A DNA stretch of 64,000 nt from a virus. The notes below the pieces were generated by a model. That model made no database searches, had not been told where the DNA came from, and was given only the letters and a program-made list of their open reading frames with translations. Location: the IMG/VR virus record IMGVR_UViG_3300008107_000043, positions 1 to 64,000 of that record; one strand, written 5' to 3'. Position 1 is the stretch's first letter. Every line of letters begins with the position of its first letter. Position numbers and translations under genes: made by a program. Shown piece by piece: positions 5,199 through 64,000 of the stretch.

Positions 5199-5447
5199 TT
5201 GGCAACTTATCCTGTTATTAATAAAGAAACTGGTGAACAAAAAGATGTTGTAATGAGTGTTCACGATTGGGATCAATGGAAAAAGGACAATCCAGAGTGG
5301 GATAGAGATTGGTCTGATCCATCTACTTGCCCAAGTTCAGGAGAACTGGGAGAAGTTTATGATAGACTGAAGAAATCTCATCCAGGATGGAATGATGTTC
5401 TTCACAGAGCATCAAAGGTTCCTGGTTCAAAAGTAAAATCTATCTGA
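5199..5447 (+). CDS. Conserved cyanophage protein next to phoH (82 aa, TTG start)
   Basis: The TTG at 5199 is taken as start: a Shine-Dalgarno GGAG lies about 10 bases upstream, and MATYPVINKETGEQKDV matches the form of a family regularly found beside cyanophage phoH. The protein is small, rich in Trp and Asp (WDQWKKDNPEWDRDWSDP) and ends in a basic tail. No catalytic motif is visible; function unknown. Confidence 0.75.
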   Translation: MATYPVINKETGEQKDVVMSVHDWDQWKKDNPEWDRDWSDPSTCPSSGELGEVYDRLKKSHPGWNDVLHRASKVPGSKVKSI

Positions 5448-5455
5448 CTCTTATT

Positions 5456-6208
5456 ATGGCAAGAAAAAATACTCCCAAGAATCCAGTTCCTTTTGGTATG
5501 AGTAATAGGCAAATGAAAAGGAAAAAACCAATTAGTTCTGATATTATAAGAGAGATTGAACCTCTCACAGATAATCAAGAAGCACTATTTAAGTCTTATA
5601 AGTTAGAACAAAATATTGTTGCTTATGGATGTGCTGGTACAGGTAAAACATTCATTACCTTGTATAATGCACTAAGAGATGTTCTTGATGAAAAAACTCC
5701 TTATGAGAAAATCTATATTGTAAGGTCTCTTGTTGCAACTCGTGAGATTGGTTTCCTTCCTGGAGACCATGAAGATAAGTCTTCTCTTTATCAGATTCCA
5801 TATAAGAATATGGTTAAGTATATGTTTGAGTTGCCTGATGAAGCATCGTTCGAAATGCTGTATGGAAACCTCAAAACTCAAGGAACGATTAGTTTTTGGA
5901 GTACTTCTTTTATTCGGGGAACTACTCTGGACAATGCAATCATTATTGTAGATGAGTTTCAGAATCTAAACTTTCACGAACTTGATAGTATCATTACTCG
6001 TGTTGGAGAGAATAGTAAAATTATGTTCTGTGGTGATGCTACTCAATCTGACTTAGTTAAAACAAACGAAAAGAATGGTATTATTGATTTTATGAAGATT
6101 CTCCGTGTAATGCCTTCAATTGATATTGTTGAATTTGGTGTAGGAGATATTGTCCGCTCTGGATTTGTTAAAGAGTATATTATTGCAAAAATGGAATCTG
6201 GTCTATGA
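5456..6208 (+). CDS. phoH: PhoH-like P-loop ATPase
   Basis: The 250-residue protein has a Walker A loop (GCAGTGKT, residues 58-65) and a Walker B segment IIIVDEFQN typical of PhoH. The following GDATQSDL resembles a helicase sensor motif. PhoH is very widespread in marine phages; proposed roles include RNA metabolism and response to phosphate stress, but its function in phages is unproven. The stop overlaps the next ATG (ATGA). No PHO-box-like regulatory repeat was seen upstream. Confidence 0.93.
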   Translation: MARKNTPKNPVPFGMSNRQMKRKKPISSDIIREIEPLTDNQEALFKSYKLEQNIVAYGCAGTGKTFITLYNALRDVLDEKTPYEKIYIVRSLVATREIGFLPGDHEDKSSLYQIPYKNMVKYMFELPDEASFEMLYGNLKTQGTISFWSTSFIRGTTLDNAIIIVDEFQNLNFHELDSIITRVGENSKIMFCGDATQSDLVKTNEKNGIIDFMKILRVMPSIDIVEFGVGDIVRSGFVKEYIIAKMESGL

Positions 6209-43572: not shown

Positions 43573-44235
43573 ATGTACGCACTAGTTAATGGTCAAGAAT
43601 TACTTTTAGGACCAATCACATTCAACTACAGAATGATTAATTCAGTTCTTGAAGATGAACTTGAAGTAGATTATAGGGTGACTTCACAAGACTATCAATC
43701 AGTTCCTATTATTTTTAATGAAGAGATTAAAATTCTTCCAGCAAGAAATGAGATTCCAGAGTTTGATCCAAGATTTCAAACAGTATCCCAAACAAGTCAT
43801 ACAATTGCAGATGATGAAGTAGTCTTTGTTTATACTGTTTCCGATAAACCACTTGAGCAAATTAAAGACGAATACAAAGCAGGTGTAAAACCAGAAAGAC
43901 AAAGAAGAGAAAGTACTAGGGTTGAAGTTACTATTAATAATTCTACAATTACAGTAGCAACAGACAGAGAAAATCGTTTAGCACTTACTTCAAAGTACAT
44001 TGCAGGACCTGGACCTCATAACTTTAAGTTTGATAATGGAACTTGGTTAGAAATCACCACAGAAGATTTGCAAACCATTATTCAAGCAGTGGATTCAAAA
44101 GTTCAAGAAGCATATGATTGGGAACTTGCAAAACTTCAAGAGATTGATGCTTGTGAGACTAAAGAATCTGTTTATGAAGTAGAGATTGTTCCACCTGTAG
44201 AAATGCCTGGAGTAGTTCAAAATGCCCAATCCTAA
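43573..44235 (+). CDS. Tail-fibre-associated protein with DUF4376-like C-terminus (220 aa)
   Basis: The N-terminal half (MYALVNGQELLLGPITFNYR) is beta-rich, followed by a helical linker (EQIKDEYKAGVKPERQRRES). The C-terminal NFKFDNGTWLEITTEDLQTI plus a helix (VDSKVQEAYDWELAKLQEID) resembles DUF4376, common in phage tail fibres and fibre assembly proteins. It lies between two RCC1 propeller genes and overlaps the second by 14 bases, so it may be an assembly or adaptor protein for them. Confidence 0.65.
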   Translation: MYALVNGQELLLGPITFNYRMINSVLEDELEVDYRVTSQDYQSVPIIFNEEIKILPARNEIPEFDPRFQTVSQTSHTIADDEVVFVYTVSDKPLEQIKDEYKAGVKPERQRRESTRVEVTINNSTITVATDRENRLALTSKYIAGPGPHNFKFDNGTWLEITTEDLQTIIQAVDSKVQEAYDWELAKLQEIDACETKESVYEVEIVPPVEMPGVVQNAQS

Positions 44236-45484
44236 TACCAACTTTAAAGATTCTTTTGGTACTGATTTAGGCAATAAACTCATTACCAAAGAATACTTAA
44301 TGACTGTGTATCCACAGATTGCAAATCAGTTGATTACTCCAGAACTTTGGGTTTGGGGATATAGTGGTTTTGGACAATTAGGAAACAATAATTCATTAGT
44401 AAATATATCTACACCAATCACAACAATAGCAGGAGGAGCAAACTGGAAACAAGTTTCTTGTGGATATCGGCATACGGCAGCAATCAAAACTGATGGAACT
44501 TTGTGGACTTGGGGATTTTCCAATAGTAATAATAAAGGTTCTGTAGTTGTTGTAGGAACACTTGGTATAAATGACACAACTACATTTATTAGATCCACTC
44601 CAGTTACTACATTTGCAGGAGGAACCAACTGGAAACAAGTTTCTTGTGGAGGTAATTTTACAGCAGCAATCAAAACTGATGGAACCTTATGGACTTGGGG
44701 AAATAATAGTAATGGACAACTAGGAGACAATACAGGAACCAATAGACTTACTCCAGTCACAACATTTGCAGGTGGAACCAACTGGAAACAAGTTGCTGGG
44801 GGGGGATACAGTACAGCAGCAATCAAGACTGATGGAACACTATGGACTTGGGGATATGGTGCATTTGGGCAACTAGGAGACAATACAACTACATTTATTA
44901 AATCCACTCCAGTCACAACATTCGCAGGAGGAACCAACTGGAAACAAGTTTCTTGTGGACAATATCATACAGCAGCAATCAAAACTGATGGAACTTTGTG
45001 GGGTTGGGGTGAGCCTGGTGGAGGGAGACTTGGAGATAATACAAATCTAACAAGTAAACTTACTCCAGTCACAACATTTGCAGGAGGAACTAACTGGAAA
45101 CAAGTTTCTGGTGGAAATAATCATACCGCAGCAATCAAGACTGATGGAACCTTATGGACTTGGGGTAGTAATACTTCAGCAGGAGTACTTGGGATTAATA
45201 GTTCAAATGCCGCTCTTAATATATCTACTCCTGTTACTACATTCGCAGGAGGAACCAACTGGAAACAAGTTGCTTGTGTATCCGGTACTATAAATGCAAT
45301 CAAAACTGATGGAACTTTATGGATTTGGGGATCTAATAATCTTGGACAACTAGGAGATAATACAATAATCTCCAGATCCACTCCAGTCACAACATTCGCT
45401 GGAGGGACCAATTGGAAACAAGTTTCTGCTGGACCTAATTATACTGCAGCAATCAAAACTTCAGATGATTTGCAAGGTATCTAA
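44222..45484 (+). CDS. RCC1-type seven-repeat beta-propeller fibre protein, copy 2 (420 aa)
   Basis: The anchor of about 40 residues (MPNPNTNFKDSFGTDLGNKL) shares the D.L...Y pattern of copy 1. Seven TLWxWG repeats follow (cores WVWGYSG, WTWGFSN, WTWGNNS, WTWGYGA, WGWGEPG, WTWGSNT, WIWGSNN). Framework residues are nearly identical to copies 1 and 3. Differences cluster after WG and around the CGxxHT segment. The second blade has an insert (NNKGSVVVVG). Probable virion adhesin. Confidence 0.82.
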   Translation: MPNPNTNFKDSFGTDLGNKLITKEYLMTVYPQIANQLITPELWVWGYSGFGQLGNNNSLVNISTPITTIAGGANWKQVSCGYRHTAAIKTDGTLWTWGFSNSNNKGSVVVVGTLGINDTTTFIRSTPVTTFAGGTNWKQVSCGGNFTAAIKTDGTLWTWGNNSNGQLGDNTGTNRLTPVTTFAGGTNWKQVAGGGYSTAAIKTDGTLWTWGYGAFGQLGDNTTTFIKSTPVTTFAGGTNWKQVSCGQYHTAAIKTDGTLWGWGEPGGGRLGDNTNLTSKLTPVTTFAGGTNWKQVSGGNNHTAAIKTDGTLWTWGSNTSAGVLGINSSNAALNISTPVTTFAGGTNWKQVACVSGTINAIKTDGTLWIWGSNNLGQLGDNTIISRSTPVTTFAGGTNWKQVSAGPNYTAAIKTSDDLQGI

Positions 45485-50201: not shown

Positions 50202-51392
50202 ATGCCTACTTTTTACAACTATACGGAAGGTGGTCAAGTATATTCTTTTGATGATGTTTTTGTGCCTGCTGATGCTTTTAGGCAAGGGAACTTGTGGTCT
50301 TGGGGATATAATTATAATGGACAGCTGGGAGATAATACAAATCTAACAAGTAAACTTACTCCAGTCACAACATTTGCAGGAGGAACCAACTGGAAACAAG
50401 TTGCTGATGGAGGTAGTCATACAGCAGCAATCAAAACTGATGGAACACTATGGACTTGGGGATATAATTATAATGGACGACTAGGAGACAATACAGGCAA
50501 TACAGGATTCAATAGACGCACTCCACTCACCACATTTGCTGGTGGAACCAATTGGAAACAAGTTTCTGCTGGATTTGTTCATACAGCAGCAATCAAGACT
50601 GATGGAACCTTATGGACTTGGGGTCGTGCTGATAGTGGGCAACTAGGAATCAATAACACAAACCAAAGACTCACTCCAGTCACAACATTTGCAGGAGGAA
50701 CCAACTGGAAACAAGTTTCTTGTGGTGGATATTTTACAGCAGCAATCAAAACTGATGGAACTTTATGGAATTGGGGACGTAATTATAATGGACAACTAGG
50801 AAACAATACAACAACTAATGGACTTACTCCAATCACCACATTTGCAGGTGGAACCAATTGGAAACAAGTTGCTTGTGGAAATAACCATACATCAGCAATC
50901 AAGACTGATGGAACTCTTTGGACTTGGGGATATAATTATAATGGGCAACTAGGAGACCTTACATCAACCCAAAGAAACACTCCAGTCACCACATTTTTTG
51001 GAGGAACCAACTGGAAACAAGTTTCTTGTGGACAAAATTATGCAGCAGCAATCAAAACTGATGGAACTTTGTGGGGTTGGGGTGCTACTGGTTATGGGCG
51101 ACTGGGAGCTGGTGAAACCTTTTTTGATTCAGTATTCATACCAATAGAAACATTTGCAGGAGGAACCAACTGGAAACAAGTTGCTTGTGGTGAATCTCAC
51201 ACTGCAGCAATCAAAACTGATGGAACCTTATGGACTTGGGGTGGGAATGGTTATGGAGCACTAGGAAATAATACATCAGGAATCAATAGACTCACTCCAG
51301 TCACCACATTTGCAGGAGGAACCAACTGGAAACAAGTTTCTTGTGGACAATATCATACAGCAGCAATCACATACATAGATGATTATCAGTAA
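50202..51392 (+). CDS. RCC1-type seven-repeat beta-propeller fibre protein, copy 3 (396 aa)
   Basis: A short anchor (MPTFYNYTEGGQVYSFDDVF) is followed by seven TLWxWG repeats (WSWGYNY, WTWGYNY, WTWGRAD, WNWGRNY, WTWGYNY, WGWGATG, WTWGGNG). The frequent WGYNYNGQLGDNT and the invariant TFAGGTNWKQV show recent spread or recombination between copies. It is next to Cys-cluster protein B and upstream of the sulfotransferase. Probable virion adhesin; the ligand is unknown. Confidence 0.82.
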   Translation: MPTFYNYTEGGQVYSFDDVFVPADAFRQGNLWSWGYNYNGQLGDNTNLTSKLTPVTTFAGGTNWKQVADGGSHTAAIKTDGTLWTWGYNYNGRLGDNTGNTGFNRRTPLTTFAGGTNWKQVSAGFVHTAAIKTDGTLWTWGRADSGQLGINNTNQRLTPVTTFAGGTNWKQVSCGGYFTAAIKTDGTLWNWGRNYNGQLGNNTTTNGLTPITTFAGGTNWKQVACGNNHTSAIKTDGTLWTWGYNYNGQLGDLTSTQRNTPVTTFFGGTNWKQVSCGQNYAAAIKTDGTLWGWGATGYGRLGAGETFFDSVFIPIETFAGGTNWKQVACGESHTAAIKTDGTLWTWGGNGYGALGNNTSGINRLTPVTTFAGGTNWKQVSCGQYHTAAITYIDDYQ

Positions 51393-57965: not shown

Positions 57966-58727
57966 ATGGCACTTGCTCACTCACCCTCAATAGTTACATC
58001 AGGATTAGTTCTTTGTTTAGATGCAGCAAATACAAAGTCTTATCCTGGAACAGGTGAAACTTGGACTGATTTGAGTGGTCGTGGAAATAATGCAACAAGA
58101 ACAAATAATGGTGGATATGGTGGTCAAGTAACATATAATTCTTCTGGTTATTTTGATTTTAGTGTGAATAGTCCTGCATCTACTTCTGGTGCTGGTGCTG
58201 GTAATGGATTTACTATGTCAAGTATGATTATCCCATCAACTGGTAGTTTTACTTTAAGTGCTTTTATACGAAGAAATCTATCAGTAAAAGCAGCAGGAGA
58301 TAGAGAAACTATCTTTAGTAATACTGCTAGTGCTGATGGATGGAGATTTGGGGTATTTGATACTGGAGGCATATACTATCTTATTGGTGGTGCTGGTGGT
58401 TCTGGATATCAAGAAGGTGGTCTTGGCGGAAGCACTCTAACAAATGGAAATTGGCATATGATGACTGCTGTGTTTGACCGTGCTGCTGTTCTTGGTTCTT
58501 ATACAATATATGGTTATATTGATGGTGTTGCATCTGGGAGTGCAACTATTTCTGCCGGTGCTGGTGGTAATGTTGCATTTAGTACTCAAAATCCTGGAGT
58601 TGGTTATGGTGGATGTTGTGATGTTTTTGCAGGACAAATAGCAACTGTTTCTGCATACAACAGAGCCCTCACGGCATCAGAAATACGACAAAACTTCAAC
58701 GCCCTTCGTAGTCGTTTCTCAATTTAA
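57966..58727 (+). CDS. LamG/concanavalin-A-like lectin protein (253 aa)
   Basis: The VLCLDAANTKSYPGTGETWT start and WTDLSGRGNNATRTN are typical of LamG-like phage adhesins. The middle holds NWHMMTAVFDRAAVLGSYTI and YGYIDGV, and the C-terminus SAYNRALTASEIRQNFNALR is the final strand pattern of LamG domains. It probably binds a cell surface sugar. It is the first of a LamG-PA14-PA14 adhesin series; a fragment of a second copy's tail lies at 59403-59477. Confidence 0.82.
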   Translation: MALAHSPSIVTSGLVLCLDAANTKSYPGTGETWTDLSGRGNNATRTNNGGYGGQVTYNSSGYFDFSVNSPASTSGAGAGNGFTMSSMIIPSTGSFTLSAFIRRNLSVKAAGDRETIFSNTASADGWRFGVFDTGGIYYLIGGAGGSGYQEGGLGGSTLTNGNWHMMTAVFDRAAVLGSYTIYGYIDGVASGSATISAGAGGNVAFSTQNPGVGYGGCCDVFAGQIATVSAYNRALTASEIRQNFNALRSRFSI

Positions 58728-58735
58728 CATAAATA
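58728..58735 (+). promoter_or_regulatory. Candidate late promoter (CATAAATA)
   Basis: It begins directly after the LamG stop and lies 26 bases before the next ATG. Confidence 0.5.
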
Positions 58736-58761
58736 CAAAAACGAAGAGGTATTGAGAGAGA

Positions 58762-59385
58762 ATGGGAGTACAATATAACACCCCTCGCACAACATTTGGA
58801 CTTGCTGGAAAGTTTTTTAACGGAAGTTGGAGAGCAACTATTGCTAATGGTAATATTGGAACTTTACCACTAACCACAGCAAACGACAGTAGTAATGTTA
58901 CTGGAACTACTGGACTACCATCAGCAAATCATAGATATGGAGTTAATTTGTGGACTTCCATAGCATTTGGTAATGATATTGGTAGTAATTATGGTTTTAT
59001 TGCTATTGGATATTTTTTACCACCATCTACAGGAACTTATACAATATATACTTCATCTGATGATTATAGTGGTGTTTGGATAGGAAATTTAGCACTACCA
59101 GAGGAAACAAGAACCTCTGCTAATGCAACATTAAATAATGGAATGAATTTGGGAAGTGGTGGTCAAGCAAACACTAAAAGGTCTGCAACTATATCTTTGA
59201 CTGGCAAAGTGATGTATCCAATCAGAATAGTAATGGAAGAAGCTGGTGGAGGAGACAATCTTACTTTTAGTTGGTCAGGTCCCGGAATAGCAGAGACAAC
59301 AGATTTATCAACACATTTTCGTACACCTATATCACCAAGTGGAGCACTAGCAGGAAATTACTTTTTTAGACCAAGCAATATCTAA
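58762..59385 (+). CDS. PA14-like adhesin A (207 aa)
   Basis: The pattern FIAIGYFLPPSTGTYTIYTS SDDYSGVWIGNLAL, split here by the 20-residue rule, and VMYPIRIVMEEAGGGDNLTF, SWSGPGIAET are the PA14 hallmark (SSDD...WIG...G.YPIRI...GGG...W.GPG). PA14 domains bind glycans. The protein shares its plan with adhesin B downstream. Its stop codon lies in a late-promoter-like box. Confidence 0.82.
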   Translation: MGVQYNTPRTTFGLAGKFFNGSWRATIANGNIGTLPLTTANDSSNVTGTTGLPSANHRYGVNLWTSIAFGNDIGSNYGFIAIGYFLPPSTGTYTIYTSSDDYSGVWIGNLALPEETRTSANATLNNGMNLGSGGQANTKRSATISLTGKVMYPIRIVMEEAGGGDNLTFSWSGPGIAETTDLSTHFRTPISPSGALAGNYFFRPSNI

Positions 59386-59388
59386 ATA
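59381..59388 (+). promoter_or_regulatory. Candidate late promoter overlapping a stop codon (TCTAAATA)
   Basis: The TAA of PA14 adhesin A (59383-59385) is within the octamer. Confidence 0.4.
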
Positions 59389-59402
59389 CTTCAAAAACCC
59401 AA

Positions 59403-59477
59403 ATGTACAGCAGAGCACTCACAGCGGCAGAAATCCAACAAAACTTCAATGCATTAAGAGGGAGGTTTGGAATCTAA
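59403..59477 (+). pseudogene. Remnant of a LamG C-terminus (24 codons)
   Basis: MYSRALTAAEIQQNFNALRG followed by RFGI and TAA matches the last 24 residues of the LamG protein at 57966-58727 (YNRALTASEIRQNFNALRSR). No LamG body lies upstream; instead there is a PA14 gene. It may be translated as a tiny peptide but is best read as a scar of a lost or replaced lectin gene. Its stop overlaps the ATG of PA14 adhesin B. Confidence 0.75.
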
Positions 59478-60007
59478 TGGGTGTTTATTGTGGCATTACA
59501 ACTAGTTGGATTAACTTACAATCTGGACTTTTAGGAAAAAGATATGTTAATTATTATAATGATGTTGTTTCATTTTTTTCCACCGCAACATTGCACGGTG
59601 ATATCAACTTAACAACATCTATTAATAACTTTACTAGCAGTGCTGATTTAGACAGTTGGATGTGGTTAGGATATTTTCTTGCACCTACAACAGGAACTTA
59701 TACTTTTTATACCTCCTCTGATGATGCAAGTCATTTATGGATAGGTTCTAATGCATTAACTGGATATACTACTGCAAATTCAACTGTTAATAATGGAGGT
59801 CTTCACGGAGTTGTGGAGAAAAGTGGAACTACAACATTAACAGCGGGAGTTTATTATCCAATTAGAATAATGTTTGGGGAAAATGGTGGTGGTGATGTTA
59901 TGACAGTTTCATTCGCTGGACCAGGAATAACAAAAACTACCAATGGTTTGGGGTATTATTTTGGTGGTAGAGATATTTTATTTACAGATAAGAGAACTTT
60001 TACATAA
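59477..60007 (+). CDS. PA14-like adhesin B (176 aa)
   Basis: SWMWLGYFLAPTTGTYTFYT, SSDDASHLWIG, GVYYPIRIMFGENGGGDVMT and FAGPG give the same PA14 core as adhesin A, with an otherwise different N-terminus (MGVYCGITTSWINLQSGLLG). The start overlaps the LamG remnant stop (TAATG). It probably recognises a different host glycan. Confidence 0.8.
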   Translation: MGVYCGITTSWINLQSGLLGKRYVNYYNDVVSFFSTATLHGDINLTTSINNFTSSADLDSWMWLGYFLAPTTGTYTFYTSSDDASHLWIGSNALTGYTTANSTVNNGGLHGVVEKSGTTTLTAGVYYPIRIMFGENGGGDVMTVSFAGPGITKTTNGLGYYFGGRDILFTDKRTFT

Positions 60008-60053
60008 TTAAATTTAACAAAATAACAACAAAATCTCGCTATGGTCTATAGGT

Positions 60054-60086
60054 TATAAATAATAAAAAACTCTTACATAAGAGTTT
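60054..60086 (+). promoter_or_regulatory. Late promoter TATAAATA followed by a leader hairpin
   Basis: Perfect TATAAATA at 60054-60061, then AAACTCTT-ACAT-AAGAGTTT (60067-60086). Transcripts from this promoter would start with the hairpin at their 5' end. No T-run follows. The next gene starts at 60120. Confidence 0.6.
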
Positions 60087-60119
60087 CTCTACGGTATATA
60101 CCATCAATGAGAGGATTGA

Positions 60120-61985
60120 ATGGCAGATCCAAATATTAGGATAAAAAGGTCAGCAGTTCCCGGTAAAGCACCGCAGGTAAGTGATTTGCCTTTGGGAGAA
60201 CTTGGCCTTAATACATATGATGCAGAGTTATATGCCCGTAGAGAAAGAGCAGGTATAGGCACCGATATTGTAAGACTTGGTGCTGGAGCAACAGTTACTA
60301 ATATTCTTTATGTCACACAAGATGGAAGCGACACCAATACAGGAAAAAAACTTGGAGACGCAAAACGAACAATTGGAGCAGCACTTACAACAGCAACAAC
60401 AGGAACAGTTATTAAAGTTAGTGCTGGATCTTATCTAGAAAATAATCCTCTCATTATTCCAGAGCAAGTTTCAATTGTTGGAGATAGTTTAAGAGAAGTA
60501 TCAGTATCTCCACAGAATGCAAATCAAGACTTGTTCTATGTTTCTAATGGAAATTATATTGCAGAGATGTCTTATACAGGCACTCTGAATTCTGGTAAGG
60601 CAATCTTTGCATTCAATCCAACTGAAGTAGGATATTTTAATCAGTCACCTTATATTCAGAACTGCACTAACTTTATTCCAAATAGTATTGGATTAAAGAT
60701 TGATGGTTCAAAGGCAATAGGACCATTAAAGTCAATGGTTCTGGATTCATATACGCAGTATAATCAAGGCGGTATTGGTTGCTCAATTACCAACGAAGGT
60801 TATGCACAGTTGGTTTCATTGTTTACCATCTGTAATGATACTGCAGTTTTTTGTGGTTCTGGGGCTGCTTGTGATTTAACCAACTCAAACTCATCGTTTG
60901 GAAATTATGCACTCGTTGCCGATGGAGTTGGTCCAAAAAAATATACAGGTATTGTTACAAGTTCTGCAGCAGCAAATGCAGATACTTTTGTTTTGGATTT
61001 AAATGTTCCAACATTCAGTGTAACCAACGCACTTTATAATAATACTACAGGTCTTACCACAATTACAGTAAACTCTAATCACAATTTTAATGTTGGAATG
61101 GGAGTTTCGATTGTTGGTCTTGCATTTACTTGCTCTTCTGGACCAGGAATTGTAACTTACCCATCAGGAAATAAAGGATATATTTTTGAAGTTGTAGGAA
61201 CTCCTTCTTCAACTTCTTTTGAGGTTTATGTTGGAGTTTCTACTCTCTCTCATACCTATCAATCTGGTGGAACTGCAAAAATAAATGTAGCAAGACCTTT
61301 TGATGGACAAGTGGTTTATTTTGAGGACTTATATTATACAGTTGGTGATATTACAGTTGGGTCTGGTGGAACTGGATATTCTGGAAATGCTGATGTGACA
61401 ATTGGTTCTCCTTCAACACCTTGGGGTATTCTTGCCACTGCTGTTGCTGAAGTTAGAAATGGTTCTGTTATTTCCGTTGAAATGGTTTCAAGTGGGAGAG
61501 GTTATGGTTCTACGCCACCTTTAGTATCTTTCAGTATGCCAAATGTTGGGGTTAATTCTGCAACAGGATCTGCAAATCTTGCTCCAACTTATTATGTTAT
61601 TCAAAGTTCTACACCAGTTTCTGCTGGAATATGTACGATTACACTAACTGATAATGTTCCTTATGCAGTTGGTGTAGGCACAACAGTTCCTTTCTTTAAA
61701 CAAAGTAGAGTATTAGCATCAGGTCATTCTCTTGAATATATTGGATCTGGAACAAACATTGCAACTGCACTTCCTCAAAATGGTGGTGTGCCAATTCAAA
61801 ATAATGAGACTAATTCTCGTAATGGTGGTCTTGTAGTATTCACATCTACTGACCAATCAGGAAACTTTAGAATTGGTGAGGGTGTTGCAATTAATCAACA
61901 AACAGGAACCATTAGTGGAACATTTTATTCCAAGAGTTTGTTTTCAACAATGACACCATTTATTTTAGCACTAGGGGGAGATTAA
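60120..61985 (+). CDS. Beta-helix virion protein (621 aa)
   Basis: The N-terminus (IRIKRSAVPGKAPQVSDLPL then GELGLNTYDAELYARRERAG) is an Mtd-type attachment domain. It is followed by a right-handed beta-helix-like body (LYVTQDGSDTNTGKKLGDAK, VSIVGDSLREVSVSPQNANQ). VGSGGTGYSGNADVTIGSPS and QSGNFRIGEGVAINQQTGTI are shared types with other large cyanophage structural proteins. It is probably a baseplate or fibre component. A tail-spike hydrolase role would need catalytic residues that cannot be picked out by eye. Confidence 0.7.
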   Translation: MADPNIRIKRSAVPGKAPQVSDLPLGELGLNTYDAELYARRERAGIGTDIVRLGAGATVTNILYVTQDGSDTNTGKKLGDAKRTIGAALTTATTGTVIKVSAGSYLENNPLIIPEQVSIVGDSLREVSVSPQNANQDLFYVSNGNYIAEMSYTGTLNSGKAIFAFNPTEVGYFNQSPYIQNCTNFIPNSIGLKIDGSKAIGPLKSMVLDSYTQYNQGGIGCSITNEGYAQLVSLFTICNDTAVFCGSGAACDLTNSNSSFGNYALVADGVGPKKYTGIVTSSAAANADTFVLDLNVPTFSVTNALYNNTTGLTTITVNSNHNFNVGMGVSIVGLAFTCSSGPGIVTYPSGNKGYIFEVVGTPSSTSFEVYVGVSTLSHTYQSGGTAKINVARPFDGQVVYFEDLYYTVGDITVGSGGTGYSGNADVTIGSPSTPWGILATAVAEVRNGSVISVEMVSSGRGYGSTPPLVSFSMPNVGVNSATGSANLAPTYYVIQSSTPVSAGICTITLTDNVPYAVGVGTTVPFFKQSRVLASGHSLEYIGSGTNIATALPQNGGVPIQNNETNSRNGGLVVFTSTDQSGNFRIGEGVAINQQTGTISGTFYSKSLFSTMTPFILALGGD

Positions 61986-62327: not shown

Positions 62328-64000
62328 ATGGCAAAGTACATCAGTAACCGTCAAAAAAATCTTAAGATTGGTATTAGTTCATATACCGAAAGTCAGACAG
62401 TACTTGAGGTTACTGGTAAAGTTGGAATTGGAACTACAAACGCAACACAAAAATTAGATATTGTAGGAAATATTAGAATTCGTGGTGGAATTTATGATAA
62501 GGACAATAATTCAGGTACAGATACTTATGTTCCAATTGCAGATGGTGTTGGAGGATGGAGTTGGCAACCAGTAACTTCTGCTGGAGCTGGTGTACTTGAT
62601 GGTATTACAATTAAAGAAGAAGGTTCAACAGTCGGAACTGCTGGAAGTGTTACATTTATTAACTTTGTTGGAGCAGGTGTAACAGCAACTGCAGCAGGTG
62701 CTGGAGCCACCATTACTTTTACTCAACAAGCTGGACCTCAGGGTATTCAGGGTTCTACAGGTAGTCAAGGTTCTGTTGGTGCTCAAGGATCAACAGGTTC
62801 TCAAGGATCAACAGGTGCTCAAGGTTCAACAGGTGCTCAAGGTTCAACAGGTAGTCAAGGTTCTACTGGAGCACAAGGTACATCAGGTATTCAAGGTGAT
62901 GTAGGTTCTCAAGGTTCTACTGGATCTCAAGGTGCATCAGGTTCTCAAGGTTCTACAGGTTCTCAAGGTTCTACAGGTAGTCAAGGTTCTGTTGGTGCTC
63001 AAGGTTCTACAGGTTCTCAAGGATCAACAGGTAGTCAAGGTTCTGTTGGTTCTCAAGGTACATTAGGTAGTCAAGGTTCTGTTGGTGCTCAAGGATCAAC
63101 AGGTTCTCAAGGTTCAGCAGGTGCTCAAGGTTCAACAGGTGCTCAAGGTTCAACAGGTTCTCAAGGTGCATCAGGTATTCAAGGTGATGTAGGTTCTCAA
63201 GGTTCTACTGGATCTCAAGGTGCATCAGGTGCTCAAGGTTCTACTGGAGCACAAGGTTCTACAGGTTCTCAAGGTTCTACAGGTTCTCAAGGTTCAACAG
63301 GTTCTCAAGGTTCAACAGGTGCTCAAGGTTCAACAGGTAGTCAAGGTTCTATAGGTAGTCAAGGTGTCCAGGGTACAACGGGACCAGTAGCAGGATCTGC
63401 AAATCAAATTGTTTATAAGGATGGTTCTAATAACCCTGCTGGATCTGTCAACTTAACTTTTGATGGTTCCAATCTTTATGTTGGTGGAAATATAACCATT
63501 GGTGGTACATCATCATATATTGTATCTAACGAACTTAGAATTAAGGATAAGGATCTTGTAGTTGGTATTGTTACAAATTCTCTTGGTAATGATACTTCTA
63601 CAGATACAACAGCAAATACTGGTGGTATTGCGATTGCTTCTACCGAAGGCAGTCCATTAGTTAGTTTAAGTTCTGCTGGAGAAGTAACACCAGATACCTA
63701 TAAGCAGTTAATGTGGTTTAAGTCTGGTTCCTTTACTGGTCTCAATACTGATGCTTGGATATTTAATTATGGTGTTGGTATTGGTTCTACACAAATTCCA
63801 TTAGGAGTTAGACTTGCTGCTGGAGGAATGCAAGTTACTGATACAACTTTAAGCATTCCACAATTGAATGTTTCTGGTGTTTCTACAATATCAGTTAATA
63901 GTTCAACTGATGCATTAAGAATTACTCAAGAAGGTTCTGGTAATGCATTAGTTGTAGAAGATAGTACAAATCCAGATTCAACTCCATTTGTAGTTACTGG
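62328..64000 (+). CDS. Collagen-like tail fibre (3' end outside window)
   Basis: ATG 62328 opens a frame that runs to the window edge (557 codons visible). Residues 1-135 are a fibre attachment/shaft region (MAKYISNRQKNLKIGISSYT; VLEVTGKVGIGTTNATQKLD). Residues 136-354 are about 73 Gly-X-Y triplets, mostly GSQ, GAQ and GST. Residues 355-557 are fibre shaft that includes a block shared with the 55479 protein (DTTANTGGIAIASTEGSPLV). Collagen-like segments give long flexible trimeric shafts in phages. The receptor-binding end is not visible. Confidence 0.85.
   Translation, partial: MAKYISNRQKNLKIGISSYTESQTVLEVTGKVGIGTTNATQKLDIVGNIRIRGGIYDKDNNSGTDTYVPIADGVGGWSWQPVTSAGAGVLDGITIKEEGSTVGTAGSVTFINFVGAGVTATAAGAGATITFTQQAGPQGIQGSTGSQGSVGAQGSTGSQGSTGAQGSTGAQGSTGSQGSTGAQGTSGIQGDVGSQGSTGSQGASGSQGSTGSQGSTGSQGSVGAQGSTGSQGSTGSQGSVGSQGTLGSQGSVGAQGSTGSQGSAGAQGSTGAQGSTGSQGASGIQGDVGSQGSTGSQGASGAQGSTGAQGSTGSQGSTGSQGSTGSQGSTGAQGSTGSQGSIGSQGVQGTTGPVAGSANQIVYKDGSNNPAGSVNLTFDGSNLYVGGNITIGGTSSYIVSNELRIKDKDLVVGIVTNSLGNDTSTDTTANTGGIAIASTEGSPLVSLSSAGEVTPDTYKQLMWFKSGSFTGLNTDAWIFNYGVGIGSTQIPLGVRLAAGGMQVTDTTLSIPQLNVSGVSTISVNSSTDALRITQEGSGNALVVEDSTNPDSTPFVVT
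62733..63389 (+). repeat. Collagen-like Gly-X-Y repeat region
   Basis: A 657-base stretch codes about 73 triplets. The DNA is built of near-identical 18-base units such as GGTTCTACAGGTTCTCAA, so copy number should change easily. Proline is nearly absent from the Y position. Confidence 0.9.

What the first reader, a model, noticed from the sequence alone, without database searches (positions are those of the whole stretch)
59403..59477. LamG tail fragment as a scar of adhesin gene exchange
A 24-codon piece almost identical in protein to the last residues of the LamG lectin at 57966 stands between two PA14 genes. It suggests that a second lectin gene once stood here and that its body was replaced by a PA14 gene, with the conserved tail serving as crossover point.
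Basis: partly seen in the sequence, partly recalled or inferred. Interest (0 to 1): 0.52.

Follow-up and report, generated by a model that had tools for sequence, protein, structure and literature searches.

The report
Leftover lectin tail between phage adhesins
In a T4-like aquatic phage, a 24-codon stub is the surviving end of a lectin gene whose body was lost when a different adhesin gene took its place; a related phage still carries the whole lectin gene at that spot, so it is a readable trace of how such phages change the proteins thought to bind their hosts.

Summary
ORF 59403-59477 encodes MYSRALTAAEIQQNFNALRGRFGI, the hallmark C-terminus of phage LamG proteins, between two PA14 genes. 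It is far above chance (62.7 bits; best of 20 shuffled windows 10.2). It is 78%, not 'almost', identical to the tail of the neighbouring LamG gene; its nearest match (94.4% DNA) is elsewhere. L007 also has an intact LamG before this PA14 gene. The upstream side shares a leader, found in 13 stretches, that follows a LamG tail and precedes five different adhesin bodies: an exchange slot. Correction: the right breakpoint is probably not tail-to-tail. PA14 is followed by the promoter-like leader of another small gene (as in L013), joined to the LamG tail within 59398-59408. Five further orphan tails occur in 314 loci, so such stubs recur but are rare. The retained tail still holds a Shine-Dalgarno-like sequence and overlaps the next gene's start (TAATG), probably why it was kept. 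Kind of process known; this instance new.

The parts
57966..58727 (+). LamG1, intact LamG/concanavalin-like protein, 253 aa; its own tail is 58656-58727
   Evidence: Pfam Laminin_G_3 4.5e-16; translation
58728..58761 (+). leader with late-promoter-like ATAAATA (58729-58735); the same leader precedes different adhesin bodies in relatives; likely left exchange arm
   Evidence: motif positions
58762..59385 (+). incoming PA14/GLEYA gene (PA14a), 207 aa, occupying the second-lectin slot
   Evidence: Pfam GLEYA 5.6e-16, PA14 3.4e-14; homolog in L013 88% protein, contiguous 83.5% DNA 58632-59398
59382..59402 (+). leader CTAAATACTTCAAAAAC..., the leader that precedes the small 'MYE' gene in relatives; late-promoter-like
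59398..59408 (+). recombination junction (position uncertain by about 10 nt)
   Evidence: similarity to L013 ends at 59398, similarity to L006 begins at 59403
59403..59477 (+). orphan LamG tail (the finding): last 23 codons of a lost LamG2 gene, in frame with an ATG
59457..59465 (+). Shine-Dalgarno-like AGAGGGAGG inside the LRGRF codons, 11 nt before the next ATG
   Evidence: sequence; SD census in LamG tails
59477..60007 (+). second PA14/GLEYA gene (PA14b), 176 aa; its ATG overlaps the tail's stop codon (TAATG)
   Evidence: Pfam GLEYA 4.9e-22; homologs preceded by intact LamG with the same overlap in L006/L007
60120..61985 (+). tail-fibre gene; right-hand synteny anchor shared with L006 and L174
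   Evidence: phrog_17885 1.5e-189

Best explanation
The 24-codon ORF is the 3' stub of a LamG lectin gene (LamG2) that stood between LamG1 and the PA14b gene, as it still does in relative L006. A recombination event removed the LamG2 body and put a PA14 gene (PA14a) with its 3' leader in its place. The left join lies in a leader shared by many adhesin genes of this slot. The right join is at 59398-59408, where the promoter-like leader (possibly with the start codon) of a small neighbour gene 'MYE' meets the LamG tail. Shown: the intact gene at the site in L006, the mosaic of L013-like and L006-like DNA, and the shared leader before several adhesin bodies. Inferred: that the event was an exchange between phages rather than a deletion; that the tail end was kept because it carries the ribosome-binding site and overlapping start of PA14b; that any peptide made is a by-product or serves only translational coupling.
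For: L006 has an intact LamG2 (5319-6001) ending YNRALTAAEIQQNFNALRGRFGI, then a PA14b homolog; window 59403-60300 aligns to L006 5927-6820 at 90.2%. L007 has a different intact LamG before a 94% PA14b homolog. L013 carries PA14a contiguous with the window from the LamG1 tail to 59398, then the MYE gene. Leader scan: 13 stretches in viral contigs; ten of these plus the window were read (the other three are the window lineage); always after a LamG tail and before PA14a or one of four LamG bodies. Five other orphan tails at independent sites, one (L127) a clear in-frame fusion of a MYE start with a LamG tail. SD of 6 or more nt in 35 of 162 tails overlapping or adjoining the next start versus 7 of 187 that do not, p=2.5e-7.
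Against: Only 1 of the 6 orphan tails overlaps the next gene (others end 22-69 nt before it), so coupling does not explain orphan tails in general. The within-locus SD comparison is not significant (27 loci higher, 22 lower, 16 ties). The stub is no more diverged from L006 (4 of 72 nt) than neighbouring coding DNA, so decay is not shown. The ATG may come from LamG's own Met-Tyr (for example QMYDRAL in L143) rather than from MYE. L013's third LamG tail is nearly as close (91.7%), which would fit a deletion. All contigs with the stub are one lineage (99.96-99.99% identical over 9.6 kb).
Confidence: 0.78

Rival explanations
1. Pure deletion: the ancestor had PA14a - MYE - LamG - PA14b in tandem, and one deletion from the MYE start into the LamG tail made the stub; no exchange between phages was needed at this step.
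For: L013 shows the order PA14a - MYE - LamG - LamG; its third LamG tail matches the window stub at 91.7%. L196 shows a deletion inside one LamG gene (start MGAYSGPDVV fused to the tail).
Against: No contig with PA14a - MYE - LamG2 - PA14b was found; L006 lacks PA14a and MYE and has LamG2 directly behind the shared leader.
Confidence: 0.35
2. The tail is retained as a working cis element: a leader cistron that holds the ribosome-binding site and overlapping start for PA14b, so a replacement must keep it. (Compatible with the scar reading.)
For: AGAGGGAGG 11 nt before the overlapping ATG. PA14b-type genes in L006, L007, L270-L273, L276, L262 and L248 directly follow an intact LamG with TAATG overlap. 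Strong SD 35 of 162 versus 7 of 187.
Against: Orphan tails elsewhere lie 22-69 nt before the next gene; paired within-locus test not significant.
Confidence: 0.5
3. A real small peptide gene with its own promoter.
For: In-frame ATG, late-promoter-like CTAAATA 14 nt upstream; 4 of 6 orphan tails have an in-frame ATG.
Against: Length and start differ at every site; two have no ATG; no conserved short gene found outside this one lineage.
Confidence: 0.07
4. Assembly chimera or read error.
For: Repetitive adhesin arrays are prone to mis-assembly; the sampled contigs are from metagenomes.
Against: The same junction is in the window record and in three other contigs from separately numbered assemblies (L003, L004, L005).
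Confidence: 0.05

Closest known systems
Adhesin swapping in T-even phages by recombination between conserved motifs (Tetart, Desplats and Krisch 1998, known here only from its title in the reference list of PMC3797505)
   Same: Host-binding gene bodies are exchanged while short conserved sequences at the edges stay
   Different: There the genes are gp37/gp38; here they are small LamG and PA14 genes, and the right edge is a leader-to-tail join rather than a shared motif on both partners
Mobile regulatory cassettes / PeSL promoter - stem-loop elements of T4-type phages (Arbiol 2010; Comeau 2014; seen only as titles in the reference list of PMC4503421)
   Same: A promoter-bearing intergenic segment serves as a boundary for module shuffling
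   Different: The leader here has a late-promoter-like motif and no convincing stem-loop (-0.8 kcal/mol)
Host recognition cluster / hypervariable tail-fibre island of cyano- and pelagimyophages (PMC7029224, passages read)
   Same: Variable structural region with concanavalin-like receptor-binding candidates
   Different: That work describes island-level gradual divergence; here a single-gene replacement is read at nucleotide level
Spontaneous deletion in cyanophage S-PM2 (PMC4503421, passages read)
   Same: Loss and gain of genes by imprecise, illegitimate events proposed in a T4-like cyanophage
   Different: An ORFan region lost by supposed mispackaging, not an adhesin gene body

Membership tests
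Laminin_G_3 (PF13385) / phage LamG proteins | concanavalin-like beta-sandwich domain | tested here: not met
   The stub has only the last 23 residues; it matches positions 1325-1348/1348 of phrog_8510. It is a remnant, not a member.
Adhesin exchange by recombination at conserved motifs (T-even type) | different adhesin bodies between the same conserved flanks | tested here: met
   One leader precedes PA14a, LamG2a, LamG2b, LamG2c and LamG1-like bodies; same right flank after LamG2 or the stub
Adhesin exchange by recombination at conserved motifs (T-even type) | genes are gp37/gp38 tail-fibre adhesins | tested here: not met
   Pfam gives LamG and PA14/GLEYA
Adhesin exchange by recombination at conserved motifs (T-even type) | same motif on both partners at each crossover | tested here: inconclusive
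   Left: shared leader, yes. Right: leader or MYE start versus LamG tail, at most a few shared bases
PeSL / mobile regulatory cassette | promoter plus stem-loop between modules | tested here: not met
   Leader 58728-58762 folds at -0.8 kcal/mol; NATAAATA-like motif present
Receptor-binding function of the LamG/PA14 proteins | binds a host surface glycan | not testable with these tools
   inferred from domain families only

The most novel reading that the evidence does not exclude
The slot between LamG1 and PA14b is a standing exchange site of T4-like phages: a fixed left arm (LamG tail plus late-promoter leader) and fixed right arms (LamG tail carrying the next gene's ribosome-binding site, or the MYE leader) let unrelated lectin bodies be swapped with expression preserved, and short similarity between the MYE leader (AAAACTATTATG) and LamG tail codons (AAAACTATAATG) seeds the right-hand joins.
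Probability: 0.25. Interest if true: 0.55.

Novelty: new variant of a known kind. Interest (0 to 1): 0.38.

Why it matters
It turns an inferred process, adhesin replacement in aquatic T4-like phages, into a concrete before-and-after pair at nucleotide level, and gives a simple signature (orphan LamG tails, shared leaders) with which replacements can be counted in metagenomes. It does not change the general picture of phage tail modularity.

Tried and rejected
Recent duplication of LamG1's tail: rejected, LamG1's tail is only 70.8% identical at DNA level while L006's LamG2 tail is 94.4%.

Tail-to-tail homologous crossover at the right join: not supported, since PA14a in L013 is followed by the MYE gene, not by a LamG tail.

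General rule that orphan tails couple to the next gene: rejected, 1 of 6 overlaps.

Promoter motif: MTAAATA is not enriched in the window as a whole (28 found, 42.6 expected); only its placement is (13 of 24 plus-strand sites within 60 nt of a start against 6% by chance; gene calls were my own crude ORF calls). The site at 59382-59388 is not among the 13, because the 24-codon ORF was below my gene-length cut.

DNA-only decayed tails: nhmmer gave nine weak candidates (E 0.007-0.6), not followed. The junction-pattern scan gave 13 stretches; three are the window lineage (L347, L352, L353); of the other ten, six lie inside intact LamG ORFs of 240 to 491 codons (L345, L348, L349, L351, L354, L355) and four (L344, L346, L350, L356) show no LamG; it found no new case.

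Papers: no paper found that describes orphan LamG tails in phages; searches were and 80 of the held library only. Papers seen: passages of PMC3037559, PMC2984593, PMC4503421, PMC7029224 and PMC3797505; listings only for the rest.

Ascertainment: the window lineage, L007 and L014 came from PA14 searches, L196 and L174 from the MYE search, L127 from the tail scan, so the link of orphan tails with PA14 genes is biased. From the census of 314 loci I had left out 30 loci that duplicate others; some contigs are still represented by more than one locus, so 520 intact tails is not a count of unique genes (349 unique by sequence under the stricter filter).

Full report
WHAT IS THERE. The window is bases 1-64000 of a 78,520-base virus record. 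It carries structural genes that match baseplate wedge, tail tube and tail-fibre families; the T4-like assignment rests on these and on relatives such as S-PM2 and S-SKS1. At 57966-60007 stand, all on the plus strand: LamG1 (253 aa), PA14a (207 aa), a 24-codon ORF, and PA14b (176 aa), followed by a tail-fibre gene at 60120. The short ORF reads MYSRALTAAEIQQNFNALRGRFGI. It matches the last 24 positions of two phage LamG-type PHROGs and scores 62.7 bits against an HMM of 144 LamG tails; the best score in 20 shuffled windows was 10.2. To LamG1's tail it is 78% identical in protein over 23 residues and 70.8% in DNA, so it is not a recent copy of its neighbour.

THE INTACT GENE AT THE SAME SITE. 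Searching viral contigs with PA14b found seven loci. Three (L003-L005) are near-identical to the window and hold the same stub. L006 (95% protein identity in PA14b) has an intact 227-aa LamG gene, starting at 5319, directly before PA14b, ending YNRALTAAEIQQNFNALRGRFGI, with the same TAATG overlap. Window 59403-60300 aligns to L006 5927-6820 at 90.2%, through PA14b into the tail-fibre gene. The tail itself is 94.4% identical. L007 has a different intact LamG in front of a 94% PA14b homolog. In a wider set of 46 PA14 loci that I listed, nine besides the window lineage show an intact LamG with the TAATG overlap directly before the PA14 gene (L267 = L006, L268 = L007, L270-L273, L276, L262, L248). 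So an upstream LamG gene is a usual neighbour, and the window has lost all but its end.

WHERE THE REPLACEMENT CAME FROM. PA14a searches found L013, which matches the window without interruption from LamG1's tail through PA14a to 59398 (83.5%). In L013 PA14a is followed by a leader, TAAATACTTCAAAAACT, and a small gene starting ATGTAC (MYESRNFAIF..., here called MYE). MYE is a family with no Pfam or PHROG hit; 180 relatives were found in viral contigs and the best 80 kept. It often stands right behind a LamG tail and often has such a leader. The window has this leader, then switches to LamG tail within 59398-59408. Whether ATG TAC comes from MYE or from a LamG Met-Tyr cannot be decided: several LamG tails have Met before Tyr, for example L143 QMYDRAL.

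THE LEFT SIDE. The stretch between LamG1 and PA14a is nearly the same in the window, L006 and L013. A scan for its core (AAAAACGAAGAGNNATTGAGAGAG) found 13 stretches. I read the window and ten of these (L357-L366; L347, L352 and L353 are the window lineage). The leader always follows a LamG tail, and precedes PA14a (window, L366), the L006 LamG2 (L363), a 217-aa LamG (L359, L362, L364), a 397-aa LamG (L360; L358 is cut off but begins alike), or a LamG resembling LamG1 (L357, L361, L365). This is direct evidence that adhesin bodies are exchanged behind one leader. The leader contains ATAAATA, like the NATAAATA late promoter reported for cyanophages (PMC2984593, passage read); it does not fold into a stem-loop worth the name.

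HOW OFTEN. In 314 loci (2.31 Mb, 30 duplicate loci left out) the tail HMM found 520 hits in ORFs of 130 codons or more and, away from contig ends, orphan tails at six independent sites: the window lineage; L007 (after its PA14b homolog, no ATG); L014 (after a PA14 ORF, no ATG); L127 (first 28 codons of a MYE gene fused in frame to the last 44 or so codons of a LamG gene); L196 (start of a LamG gene fused to a tail; L197 the same); and L174 (ATGTGCGG fused to the tail, just before the homolog of the window's 60120 gene). In L014 the MYE-type leader and the LamG tail share the run AAAACTAT at the join. Four of six are in frame with an ATG. The searches that found these loci were biased towards PA14 and MYE neighbours.

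WHY THE TAIL END STAYS. In the window the tail's LRGRF codons spell AGAGGGAGG, 11 nt before the overlapping PA14b start. Among 349 unique intact tails, matches of 6 nt or more to AAGGAGGT occur in 35 of 162 whose stop overlaps or adjoins the next start and in 7 of 187 others (p=2.5e-7). Within the 65 loci that have both kinds the difference is not significant (27 higher, 22 lower, 16 ties), so lineage effects may drive part of it. Only the window's orphan tail overlaps its next gene; the other five end 22-69 nt before it. I therefore give retention for PA14b translation as likely for the window only.

WHAT IT IS AND IS NOT. The crossover detail needs changing: shared DNA lies on the left, and the right join is between unlike sequences. 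A deletion in an ancestral tandem array would leave the same mark and remains open. Nothing suggests a conserved peptide gene. Adhesin exchange through short conserved edges is known for T-even phages (Tetart 1998, title seen in PMC3797505), so the kind is known and the instance and its arms are new as far as the searches reach.

Noticed in passing
L013:6630-6956; L160-L239: A small gene family (MYESRNFAIFSTTEIDKIDF..., about 80-108 aa), without Pfam or PHROG match, stands repeatedly right behind phage LamG genes; 180 relatives found in viral contigs. Possibly an assembly helper for the lectins.
   Followed up: partly
window 60050-60119; L006 6565-6642; L174 5655-5730: Conserved ATAAATA followed by an 8-bp hairpin (AAACTCTTA..TAAGAGTTT) just before the tail-fibre gene at 60120: a promoter plus stem-loop composite that may also act as an exchange boundary.
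   Followed up: partly
L042 near 2490, L082 near 1659, L108 near 3656, L157 near 155: In some phages the start codon of the MYE-type gene appears to lie inside the last codons of LamG (ATG within TATGG), i.e. overlapping reading frames.
   Followed up: no
window 62740-63380: Long run of collagen-like GSQGSTG / GAQGSTG repeats in a tail-fibre gene.
   Followed up: no
window 44222-45484 and 50202-51392: Two RCC1-like (regulator of chromosome condensation) repeat proteins lie among the structural genes, possibly further propeller-type adhesins.
   Followed up: no
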